From the NCBI GenBank assembly GCA_021806295.1, contig JAJZXS010000028.1, forward strand, positions 1-43,095: DNA of 43,095 nucleotides, read 5' to 3'. A program made the translations under genes and the position numbers. The DNA comes from Thermoplasmata archaeon (GTDB lineage: Archaea; Thermoplasmatota; Thermoplasmata; Thermoplasmatales; Thermoplasmataceae). The notes under the pieces are model-generated. The model was not told the origin of the DNA. It searched no databases and saw nothing but the letters and a program-made list of their open reading frames with translations. Shown here piece after piece: positions 12,023 through 15,445 of the stretch (position 1 is the first letter of the stretch; each line of letters starts with the position of its first letter).

Positions 12023-12472
12023 ATGCTGGCAATCACCCATATAAGTTTCATCTATCTGATATCTGAACTTCCCTTTGTATCTGGAGAAATTATAGCAATG
12101 ATACCTCCATTCACAACCAAATCTGGCAGGATAGCCTACCCCTACGCAAGAAAAAGGATAAAGGAAATTGGGGCCAAGGCAGGGGTGCCGAGGTTCCATG
12201 CGCATGCTGCCAGGCATAAGTGCGCAACAATGCTTCTTTTAGGCTATCGCGGAAGCATTCCGGTTGACATCAGGCAGGTGCAAATCCATTTGGGACATTC
12301 GAGCCTGGCAACCACTAGGAGGTACACCCACATCACCAGCGAGGAAGTGGCACATTCCATAAAAGACGTATACAACAGTGTTTTCAGGCGAGGGCAAAAA
12401 ACTGAAAATGGAACAGGGGGTTCAAAAATGTTTGTACCCGCACCTGCACCCGATGGGGCTGACCGGATTTGA
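12023..12472 (+). pseudogene. Tyrosine recombinase (integrase) C-terminal remnant
   Basis: From about 12100 the frame encodes the C-terminal part of an XerD/phage-type integrase: TTKSGRIAYPYARKR, then the box II HAHAARHKCATMLLL (His-x-x-Arg-His), then HLGHSSLATTRRYTHI with the nucleophilic Tyr. The SAM-like N-terminal domain and the box I Arg are missing. The residues before 12100 look like non-coding read-through of the neighbouring promoter region. The frame runs without a stop into the 3' end of the tRNA-Ile gene, so the natural C-terminus is also lost or recombined. An integrase fragment abutting a tRNA 3' end is the usual scar of tRNA-targeted integration. Confidence 0.75.
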
Positions 12473-12528
12473 ACCGGTGACCTCCCGGTTATCAGCCGGG
12501 TGCTCCAACCAAGCTAAGCTACAACCCC
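12455..12528 (-). tRNA. tRNA-Ile (anticodon GAT)
   Basis: The minus strand folds into a complete cloverleaf: acceptor GGGGTTG/CAGCCCC (one U-G pair), anticodon arm CCCGG-CTGATAA-CCGGG with anticodon GAT, and T arm ACCGG-TTCAAAT-CCGGT. The length is 74 nt without CCA and there is no intron. Its 3' end touches the integrase remnant; ttuA ends 36 bp upstream of its 5' end on the same strand. Confidence 0.95.
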
Positions 12529-13596: not shown

Positions 13597-14319
13597 ATGG
13601 ATGCACTTATTACCGCTGCTGGACTTGGAACCCGGGCAAATCTTCCAAGGGGCATGAGAAAGGAAATGCTTCCACTGTACGCAGTGAGAAATGGGAAAAT
13701 TGTGCTAAGGCCGGTGCTGGACTGCATAATGCATAATCTTTCAGATTCTGGTGTCAGAAAATTTTTCGTAGTTCTTGATCACCGCGACCTTCATACAGCC
13801 GATTATCTGTCCACATTGAGGATGAAGACCGAGTTTATATACCAGAAAAAGCCGGAAGGCTATGGAAAGGCTGTATCTCTGGCCAGGGACTATATTAAGG
13901 GTGATTTCATTCTCAATGCCGGGGACGGCATAATTATTGATACCTCGAAAATCAAAAAAATAATAAAACTATATAAAAAAACAGGCAACAGCGTTCTGAC
14001 CGTAATGTCGGTTCTAAATCCTGAAAAATACGGTGTGGCGTATATTAACACCAGGAACGTTACCAGCGTGGTTGAAAAGCCAGCGAATCCTGAATCCAAC
14101 TATGCAATGGCGGCATTCTATGTTTTCAGGCGCGATGTCCTTGATCTGGTGCGTGGGCCTGAACTTACACCTGCAATAAATAGATTTATAGCAAAAGGCA
14201 ACACTGTTGAATATTTCAAAATCAGAAAGGATGACTGGATAAGCATAGGCAACAGCGATAATTATTACCGATTGCTGGAGAGGACATATAAATTCTGCAA
14301 AAAATCTATCTCCAGTTAG
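13597..14319 (+). CDS. Sugar-1-phosphate nucleotidyltransferase (GalU/RmlA family)
   Basis: A 240-residue nucleotidyltransferase. The pyrophosphorylase signature is at the N-terminus: ALITAAGLGTR, then GMRKEMLPLY, where the Lys binds the sugar phosphate. A central NAGDGIIID (about residues 107-115) supplies the Mg-binding Asp, followed by VTSVVEKP, the usual sugar-binding E-K-P motif. It most likely makes UDP- or dTDP-glucose from glucose 1-phosphate. Its 3' end overlaps that of the SqdB homologue by 14 bp (convergent), so it may supply that enzyme with UDP-glucose (inference). It is shorter than bacterial GalU (about 300) and lacks the left-handed beta-helix of long RmlA-like proteins. Confidence 0.85.
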   Translation: MDALITAAGLGTRANLPRGMRKEMLPLYAVRNGKIVLRPVLDCIMHNLSDSGVRKFFVVLDHRDLHTADYLSTLRMKTEFIYQKKPEGYGKAVSLARDYIKGDFILNAGDGIIIDTSKIKKIIKLYKKTGNSVLTVMSVLNPEKYGVAYINTRNVTSVVEKPANPESNYAMAAFYVFRRDVLDLVRGPELTPAINRFIAKGNTVEYFKIRKDDWISIGNSDNYYRLLERTYKFCKKSISS

Positions 14320-15445
14320 TTGCAGGTTTTATGACATTTTTAAGGCTGTATACTGTATTCATATTTCTCCTGACATCCCTTATCATTACAGGGACCTCAT
14401 CGTCCAGGGACCTCTGGCGTTTGTAACCTATTTTCCGGAGATTCTCATTAACCGGGTTATAATAATGGTCCTCCATCTCAACCCTTGGGTTTTGTACATG
14501 ATCTATGCCGATATCCCTGTTGTATAGAGATTTATACTGATTTTTTACAGTTTCTGCAAGGTAGTTCAGTGGATAATATTCATCGAACTGGTTATAAACC
14601 CTGTATTCTCTTTCAGGCGGATGATCAATGATCAAATTGAGGCATTCAACGCTATCTTCCAGAGACAGGAATGCACGCTTCTGGTTTCCTTTCCCGTACA
14701 CTGTAAGCGGATATCCTATAACTGCCTGGGAAATGAACCTGTTCAATACTGTTCCGTAAACCTGGTCTATATCAAATCTTGTAAATAGCTTATACTTTGA
14801 AATTTCTGGGGTTCTGGTTCCGTATACTACGCCCTGCATTACATCACTGACATTCATATTCCATATCCTTTCTGCAAGCATCAGGCTATATGTATCGAAT
14901 ATCTTTGACAGATGGTACCATGACTGCCCCATCCTCGGAAATGGAAGATTGTCAGACCTTCCATTGTAACTTACGTTGAGAAATCCCTCCGGTATATCTA
15001 TGTTAGGAGTGCCGTACTCACCCATGGAACCGAGTTTTACAATATGTATATCCTTATTAAGGTCCTTTACGGCATATATGATGTTCATGGTACTTTCAAT
15101 ATTCTTATCCAGTGTCTCAATCGCAGTTTTCAGTGAGATCATGGAATACGGTGCAGACCTCTGCTCTGCCAGATGAACAATAGCATCCGGCTTTGAATCC
15201 CTTATAATATCGTAAACAAATTTGGAATTGCTTACATCTCCCCTATAAAATTGAATCGCATTATTCAGTTTTTTATTTCTGGTTGAAAATGAATTAATTT
15301 TAATTGCCGATTTGGAACCTACCTTCCGTACCCTGTTTCTGGTATAGAAGTTGTCAGCGCCAGCAACTTCATATCCTCTATCCAGCAGGCGAAGCGCCAG
15401 TGGAAAACCTATGTATCCGTCTATTCCCAGAATAAGTACCTTCAT
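14306..15445 (-). CDS. sqdB: UDP-sulfoquinovose synthase homologue (SQD1/SqdB/Agl3 family)
   Basis: A 379-residue extended short-chain dehydrogenase. Numbering from the preferred ATG (15445): NAD motif GIDGYIG (7-13), then HLAEQRSAPYSMI (91-103), KLGSMGEYGTPNIDIPEG (137-154), SWYHLSK with Y177 and K181, QGVVYGTRTPE, and YGKGNQKRAFL. These are nearly block-for-block the plant SQD1 motifs. The catalytic Thr of SQD1 (KLGTMGEYG) is Ser140 here. Family knowledge: UDP-glucose plus sulfite gives UDP-sulfoquinovose; in Sulfolobus, Agl3 supplies it for N-glycans. An ATG at 15460 is in frame, but a TATA-like ATATATTATTT about 25 nt before 15445 favours the shorter form. Confidence 0.92.
   Translation of the reverse strand: MKVLILGIDGYIGFPLALRLLDRGYEVAGADNFYTRNRVRKVGSKSAIKINSFSTRNKKLNNAIQFYRGDVSNSKFVYDIIRDSKPDAIVHLAEQRSAPYSMISLKTAIETLDKNIESTMNIIYAVKDLNKDIHIVKLGSMGEYGTPNIDIPEGFLNVSYNGRSDNLPFPRMGQSWYHLSKIFDTYSLMLAERIWNMNVSDVMQGVVYGTRTPEISKYKLFTRFDIDQVYGTVLNRFISQAVIGYPLTVYGKGNQKRAFLSLEDSVECLNLIIDHPPEREYRVYNQFDEYYPLNYLAETVKNQYKSLYNRDIGIDHVQNPRVEMEDHYYNPVNENLRKIGYKRQRSLDDEVPVMIRDVRRNMNTVYSLKNVIKPATNWR

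What the first reader, a model, noticed from the sequence alone, without database searches (positions are those of the whole stretch)
13597..15445. UDP-sulfoquinovose synthase homologue facing a UDP-sugar pyrophosphorylase
The SQD1 motifs are kept almost completely, including Y-x-x-x-K, while the catalytic Thr is Ser. Sulfosugars are known in Sulfolobus N-glycans, and 6-C-sulfo sugars have been reported in Thermoplasma glycoprotein. The convergent nucleotidyltransferase could supply UDP-glucose. This suggests a sulfonated surface glycan giving a fixed negative charge at very low pH.
Basis: partly seen in the sequence, partly recalled or inferred. Interest (0 to 1): 0.5.

Follow-up and report, generated by a model that had tools for sequence, protein, structure and literature searches.

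The report
Acidophile archaeon's sulfosugar synthase gene pair
A microbe that lives in strong acid carries the enzyme that puts a sulfonate group on a sugar, next to a sugar-activating gene that stays beside it in many relatives; the enzyme belongs to a known family, but what its partner does and which exact sugar is made are not settled.

Summary
Window 14306-15445 (-) encodes a UDP-sulfoquinovose synthase (NF041015, 581.5 bits, cut-off 575; SQD1, E 6.9e-92) of a Ferroplasma species. Ser140 replaces the SDR-triad Thr, probably without consequence: Ser sits in three separate places of the tree, and Agl3 T144A kept full activity (PMC4388408). The family is known; a T. acidophilum homologue was in that paper's phylogeny.

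New is the neighbour: a small sugar nucleotidyltransferase lies within 2 kb of the synthase in 112 of the 143 class genomes that have it, facing it in families f1/f4, co-directional in f15. This supports the proposed link. But all 35 aligned rows (32 loci) carry Ser where relatives have a metal-binding Asp, so UDP-glucose synthesis is unproven.

The sugar may be sulfofucose, the C4 epimer: T. acidophilum makes it, has one such synthase and the same pair, and no pathway is reported (PMC12421959). The acid-charge idea is untested. Cuniculiplasma divulgatum S5, whose pilin was modelled with sulfofucose, lacks the gene.

The parts
14306..15445 (-). UDP-sulfoquinovose synthase homologue (SQD1/Agl3 family), 379 aa from ATG; stop codon at 14306-14308
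13597..14319 (+). small sugar-1-phosphate nucleotidyltransferase (PF00483), 240 aa, convergent, tail overlaps the synthase by 14 bases; candidate UTP-glucose-1-phosphate uridylyltransferase of a Ser-variant subfamily
15026..15028 (-). codon of Ser140, position of SQD1 Thr145 / Agl3 Thr144
   Evidence: PMC4388408
14915..14917 (-). codon of catalytic Tyr177 (Y-x-x-x-K motif)
14903..14905 (-). codon of catalytic Lys181 (Y-x-x-x-K motif)
13924..13926 (+). codon of nucleotidyltransferase Asp110, the metal-binding Asp that is kept (metal role recalled)
   Evidence: Asp in 35 of 35 rows
14242..14244 (+). codon of nucleotidyltransferase Ser216, in place of the second metal-binding Asp (W-x-D-x-G becomes W-x-S-x-G; metal role recalled)
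   Evidence: Ser in 35 of 35 rows

Best explanation
The minus-strand gene encodes an NAD-dependent SDR enzyme that oxidises UDP-glucose at C4, removes water to a 4-keto-5,6-ene, adds sulfite at C6 and reduces C4 again, giving UDP-6-sulfo-6-deoxy-hexose (UDP-sulfoquinovose) (mechanism proposed for Agl3/SQD1; inferred here from homology and kept residues). The convergent small nucleotidyltransferase makes the UDP-glucose it uses (inferred from conserved adjacency and fold). The activated sulfosugar is then placed in a surface glycan, most likely the N-glycan that AglB transfers (inferred; an AglB homologue is present in the same genome). In Thermoplasmatales the sugar that ends up in the glycan may be the C4 epimer, sulfofucose, made by a later epimerase or by using UDP-galactose (open).
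For: Equivalog HMM above its cut-off (in a control set of 14 genomes the model rings in 13 but passes the cut-off in only 1). SQD1 chains are the only PDB sequences matched at E <= 1e-10. The residues needed in Agl3 are kept. In a quick 122-row tree (117 different sequences) the window sits in a Thermoplasmatales clade (37 rows, SH-aLRT 99) inside a 72-row clade (99) with Sulfolobales HS-7 and Thermoproteaceae homologues. Partner within 2 kb in 112 of 143 genomes: f1 51 of 56 and f4 9 of 9 convergent, f15 52 of 67 co-directional, 41-252 bp downstream by match edges; f14 0 of 7, f12 0 of 4. Only 2 NTP_transferase matches in the host assembly (96% complete), the other nearest a mannose-1-phosphate guanylyltransferase model, itself below cut-off. 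The nucleotidyltransferase model (mean pLDDT 92.3) aligns best with UDP-glucose pyrophosphorylases by VIA-align, Z 28.1. Other families keep heptose-type genes beside the synthase: a kinase cluster in f4 (3 of 3 loci read; one member scanned, HddA 120.5 bits, cut-off 600) and a GmhA-like isomerase in f14 (3 of 3 loci read, of 7 genomes; one member scanned, 189.3 bits, cut-off 209); the T. acidophilum glycan holds heptose and 6-sulfo-galactose (PMC12448462, passage). AglB homologue in the host at G000:C23, 57% identity to the query from genome G170.
Against: No assay. The NF041015 margin is small (6.5 bits), and f14 (505.1) and f12 (403.3) homologues fall below the cut-off. For the partner, Foldseek and phmmer rank RmlA chains first; in VIA-align an RmlA (27.3) is tied with the best UDP-glucose pyrophosphorylase (28.1); no curated cut-off is met; the second metal Asp is Ser in every row. 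A MarC-family gene is also a frequent neighbour (17 of 41 neighbourhoods against 27 for the partner's cluster), so nearness alone is not proof of a shared job. The genes directly beside the pair here (TtuA-like PP-loop, MarC, HhH-GPD) are not sugar genes. No PAPS reductase match in the host and in only 6 of 10 genus genomes, so the sulfite source is unknown. The known Thermoplasma sugar is the galacto epimer, not sulfoquinovose.
Confidence: 0.82

Rival explanations
1. The synthase is the committing enzyme of sulfofucose (6-deoxy-6-sulfo-D-galactose) synthesis: either it takes UDP-galactose, or its UDP-sulfoquinovose is turned over at C4 by a GalE-like epimerase coded elsewhere.
For: The host has a GalE-like SDR on G000:C29 (galE 130.6 bits, cut-off 262.3).
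Against: SQD1 and Agl3 take UDP-glucose; no recurrent neighbour cluster that I looked at is an epimerase (rare neighbours were not annotated); the active-site motifs are those of sulfoquinovose synthases; the Ferroplasma glycan is unknown to me.
Confidence: 0.4
2. The nucleotidyltransferase is not a UDP-glucose pyrophosphorylase but activates another sugar-1-phosphate of the same glycan (for example a heptose), and only shares the pathway with the synthase.
For: No curated cut-off met; RmlA chains lead the Foldseek and phmmer lists; Ser replaces the second metal Asp; heptose-type kinase or isomerase genes lie beside the synthase in f4 and f14.
Against: The one f15 member scanned scores best with galU (111.8 bits) and VIA-align is led by UDP-glucose pyrophosphorylases; the heptose guanylyltransferase model HddC scores only 23.6 bits; the host's one other NTP_transferase match looks like a mannose-1-phosphate enzyme.
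Confidence: 0.25
3. The sulfosugar goes to a membrane sulfolipid rather than to a protein glycan.
For: SQD1 serves sulfolipid in plants and bacteria (general knowledge); no gene in the window that I identified ties it to N-glycans.
Against: The tree places it with archaeal Agl3-like enzymes; [quoted passage not shown] AglB homologue present.
Confidence: 0.15

Closest known systems
Agl3, Sulfolobus acidocaldarius UDP-sulfoquinovose synthase (PMC4388408)
   Same: Residues needed in Agl3 kept by motif; same archaeal part of the tree as Sulfolobales HS-7 (Agl3 itself was not a row); that paper already placed a T. acidophilum homologue (NP_394533) with the hyperthermoacidophilic Euryarchaeota in cluster III beside Agl3 (section 5 read).
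   Different: Ser140 for Thr144; paired with a nucleotidyltransferase that the Sulfolobales and Thermoproteaceae loci examined (L129, L119, L138) do not have nearby.
SQD1, Arabidopsis (PDB 1i24)
   Same: Near full-length homology, E 6.9e-92, Y-x-x-x-K and neighbouring motifs kept.
   Different: Serves plastid sulfolipid (general knowledge); groups with actinobacterial and chloroflexi rows, away from the window.
GalU/AglF-type UTP-glucose-1-phosphate uridylyltransferases
   Same: Same Pfam family and fold, Z 28.1 to 2pa4; G-x-G-x-R, K-E and G-D motifs kept.
   Different: Shorter (240 aa), below the curated cut-offs, W-x-S-x-G instead of W-x-D-x-G in 35 of 35 rows.

Membership tests
UDP-sulfoquinovose synthase (NF041015) | score above curated equivalog cut-off (575 bits) | tested here: met
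   581.5 bits, narrow margin; T. acidophilum homologue 650.3, f4 612.7, f15 591.2, but f14 505.1 and f12 403.3 are below (one member each)
UDP-sulfoquinovose synthase (NF041015) | SDR active site Y-x-x-x-K plus His, Arg, Met needed in Agl3 | tested here: met
   H91, R96, M141, Y177, K181
UDP-sulfoquinovose synthase (NF041015) | Ser/Thr of the SDR triad | tested here: met
   Ser140; Ser in 15 of the 120 rows (of 122) in which the motif was found, in three separate places of the tree
[quoted passage not shown]
   needs an enzyme assay
UTP-glucose-1-phosphate uridylyltransferase (GalU/AglF) | score above equivalog cut-off | tested here: not met
   galU 63.3 bits against 326.8; AglF 67.9 against 400
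UTP-glucose-1-phosphate uridylyltransferase (GalU/AglF) | fold and N-terminal G-x-G-x-R ... K-E motif | tested here: met
   the fold is shared with RmlA and GlmU and so does not single out this family
UTP-glucose-1-phosphate uridylyltransferase (GalU/AglF) | two metal-binding Asp (recalled) | tested here: not met
   Asp110 kept, second is Ser216 in 35 of 35 rows
UTP-glucose-1-phosphate uridylyltransferase (GalU/AglF) | substrate UTP and glucose-1-phosphate | not testable with these tools
   needs an enzyme assay

The most novel reading that the evidence does not exclude
The synthase and its Ser-variant nucleotidyltransferase form a two-gene unit that makes UDP-sulfofucose for the N-glycans of acid-loving Thermoplasmatota, filling the missing biosynthetic route to sulfofucose; the nucleotidyltransferase is a new subfamily that works with one metal-binding Asp fewer.
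Probability: 0.3. Interest if true: 0.6.

Novelty: new member of a known kind. Interest (0 to 1): 0.42.

Why it matters
Sulfofucose has no identified biosynthetic route (PMC12421959, passage). This pair gives a short gene list, found in Thermoplasma as well as Ferroplasma, with which to test that route. It also lets genomes predict which Thermoplasmatales can carry a sulfosugar, and it casts doubt on one published glycan model.

Tried and rejected
Rejected: that Ser140 marks a changed or dead enzyme (Ser recurs, Agl3 T144A active). Rejected: that the host lacks N-glycosylation. Pfam STT3 found nothing in the host or in any of the 9 genomes of its genus searched, host included, but a search with a 1442-aa AglB-like ORF from genome G170 found a homologue in 9 of 10 genus genomes, the host included; of the 9 that Pfam missed, 8 have one. 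Not used as evidence: the missing PAPS reductase in the host assembly, since 6 of 10 genus genomes have a match. Led nowhere: active-site detail from the synthase model, because parts of residues 142-171 have pLDDT under 50; I ran no fold search with it. Neighbours were clustered and named by eye from 19 representative sequences; rare neighbours were not annotated, so an unlinked or rare epimerase or glycosyltransferase is not excluded.

Limits of the counts. Adjacency was computed from matches listed down to about E 1.7e-39; weaker ones were not listed, and contig ends cut some neighbourhoods, so 'not adjacent' counts may be too high. Gaps are between match edges, not stop codons. In one search the ORF caller found the synthase in 33 of 41 neighbourhoods; the 8 missed were read by tblastn instead. 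The 35-row nucleotidyltransferase alignment was made from 26 of 27 clustered ORFs (one of 624 aa left out by a length filter, its locus read by tblastn) plus 9 tblastn stretches; three loci (L058, L060, L070) occur twice, hence 32 loci. The tree is a quick one with SH-aLRT support only. Two rows (L119, L138) lack the motif searched for and were left out of the Ser/Thr count. (a note) gives the Ser as residue 139; the right number is 140.

Full report
What is there. Two ORFs meet tail to tail with a 14-base overlap: 13597-14319 (+), 240 aa, and 14306-15445 (-), 379 aa from ATG.

The synthase. NCBIfam NF041015 (UDP-sulfoquinovose synthase, equivalog) matches over its full length at 581.5 bits, cut-off 575. 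The margin is small, but a whole-genome control shows the cut-off is strict: 13 of 14 control genomes ring, 1 passes (the output does not say which). The only PDB sequences matched at E <= 1e-10 are Arabidopsis SQD1. Agl3 residues whose Ala mutants were inactive (His95, Arg101, Met145, Tyr182, Lys186; PMC4388408, passages) correspond by motif to H91, R96, M141, Y177 and K181.

The Ser. SQD1 Thr145 is Ser140 here. Of 122 tree rows (117 different) the motif was found in 120; 15 have Ser: the Ferroplasma-like clade (11 rows), family f14 (3 rows) and one MAG labelled actinomycete, L133. The row that branches just outside the Ferroplasma-like clade (L039) has Thr. Agl3 T144A 'fully retained activity' (PMC4388408).

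Spread. 143 of 400 class genomes have the synthase at E <= 1e-30, among them 56 of the 62 listed for the window's own family. In the tree the Thermoplasmatales rows form a clade of 37 (SH-aLRT 99) within 72 rows (99) that include Sulfolobales HS-7, Thermoproteaceae, Micrarchaeota and Parvarchaeota MAGs; Arabidopsis SQD1 lies elsewhere. T. acidophilum NP_394533 was already grouped near Agl3 in 2015 (PMC4388408, section 5 read), so the gene family in this order is not new.

The partner. I searched 400 class genomes with a profile of the nucleotidyltransferase and compared positions. Of the 143 genomes with the synthase, 112 have the partner within 2 kb: 51 of 56 (f1) and 9 of 9 (f4) facing it, 52 of 67 (f15) behind it on the same strand at 41-252 bp; 0 of 7 (f14) and 0 of 4 (f12). 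Of the 51 in f1, 42 lie within 60 bp (match edges). The partner's cluster occurs in 27 of 41 neighbourhoods read, a MarC-family gene in 17, every other neighbour near the synthase in fewer. Adjacency kept through a change of orientation points to a shared job. Among 80 named relatives (of 586 found) the partner is near in 26, all Thermoplasmatota-like rows or two DPANN MAGs (L105, L114), and in none of the bacterial, Thaumarchaeota, Bathyarchaeota, Sulfolobales or Thermoproteaceae loci.

What the partner does. Fold and motifs are those of sugar-1-phosphate nucleotidyltransferases. The model (mean pLDDT 92.3) aligns best by VIA-align with UDP-glucose pyrophosphorylases (Z 28.1, 25% identity), but an RmlA at 27.3 is tied and GlmU follows at 27.1; Foldseek and phmmer put RmlA chains first. 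The one f15 member scanned scores best with galU; the T. acidophilum member and the window's own score best with the archaeal GlmU-type model. The host assembly has only one other NTP_transferase match, closest to a mannose-1-phosphate guanylyltransferase model. UDP-glucose is therefore a likely product, not a shown one. Against it, the second metal-binding Asp (W-x-D-x-G in the aligned RmlA chain; metal role recalled) is Ser in 35 of 35 rows from 32 loci, and K-E-M-L-P reads K-E-I-F-S in T. acidophilum. This looks like a subfamily of its own.

Which sugar. T. acidophilum N-glycans contain 6-deoxy-6-C-sulfo-D-galactose (sulfofucose) and heptose (PMC12448462 and PMC12421959, passages; the original Glycobiology 2012 paper is not held). 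PMC12421959 states in its introduction that no biosynthetic pathway for sulfofucose has been identified. T. acidophilum (G082, contig 1,564,906 bp; name by recalled length) has one synthase match and the same convergent partner. The simplest reading is that this enzyme feeds sulfofucose in Thermoplasma, by way of a C4 epimerase or with UDP-galactose as substrate, and perhaps in Ferroplasma. That is inference. Heptose-type genes next to the synthase in f4 (kinase cluster in 3 of 3 loci read; one scanned, HddA model 120.5 bits, cut-off 600) and f14 (GmhA-like in 3 of 3 loci read; one scanned, 189.3 bits, cut-off 209) fit a joint glycan pathway. An earlier study of acid mine archaea reported AglB and AglD homologues, and heptose-pathway genes in one lineage (PMC3750248, passages).

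Where it goes. The host encodes an AglB homologue in an open frame of 2053 aa (G000:C23). No sulfite source was found: no PAPS reductase match in the host assembly (96% complete), a match in 6 of 10 genus genomes; other sulfite routes were not searched.

A side result. Cuniculiplasma divulgatum S5 (G067; contig 1,938,699 bp, equal to S5 in Table 1 of PMC5155288) has no synthase: nothing at E <= 1e-30, and a profile search finds only a 27-bit partial match against 636-667 bits in the five other genomes of that search. PMC12448462 modelled the T. acidophilum glycan, sulfofucose included, into the S5 pilin map because the exact glycan is not known, and reports that connectivity and chirality matched the density well (passages). 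Either the sulfo-sugar there is wrong or S5 makes it another way.

Is it in print. Searches for Ferroplasma with sulfoquinovose, Thermoplasmat* with UDP-sulfoquinovose, sulfofucose with biosynthesis and epimerase and T. acidophilum with 6-C-sulfofucose listed no paper whose title or abstract start describes the pair; most subscription papers are not in the library.

Verdict. An ordinary, well-supported member of a known enzyme family, with a conserved, unusual partner that makes an open question (how sulfofucose is made) testable.

Noticed in passing
L163 (G067 contig 1, 1,938,699 bp): Cuniculiplasma divulgatum S5 lacks the sulfosugar synthase, although its pilin was modelled with a sulfofucose-containing glycan (PMC12448462); the model or the assumed pathway needs checking.
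   Followed up: yes
window 13597-14319; L049:10363-11097 and 30 further loci: Nucleotidyltransferase subfamily with an invariant Ser in place of the second metal-binding Asp (W-x-S-x-G), in 35 of 35 aligned rows from 32 loci.
   Followed up: partly
L161:1538-5866; G000:C23:3396-9536: Very long AglB homologues (most frames about 1400 to 2130 aa); Pfam STT3 finds nothing in 9 of 9 genomes of the window's genus, of which 8 have a homologue by protein search.
   Followed up: partly
L105, L114: Parvarchaeota and Micrarchaeota MAGs carry the synthase with the nucleotidyltransferase facing it, as in Thermoplasmatales, while their synthase branches near the Sulfolobales one: possible transfer, or mis-binned contigs.
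   Followed up: no
L051-L053 and L063-L065: Heptose-type genes (HddA-like kinase, GmhA-like isomerase) lie directly beside the synthase in two other families.
   Followed up: partly
window 12023-12528: A tyrosine-recombinase-like fragment (12023-12472, +; identity by eye, not searched) runs into the tRNA-Ile gene at 12454-12528 (-), which looks like an integration scar.
   Followed up: no
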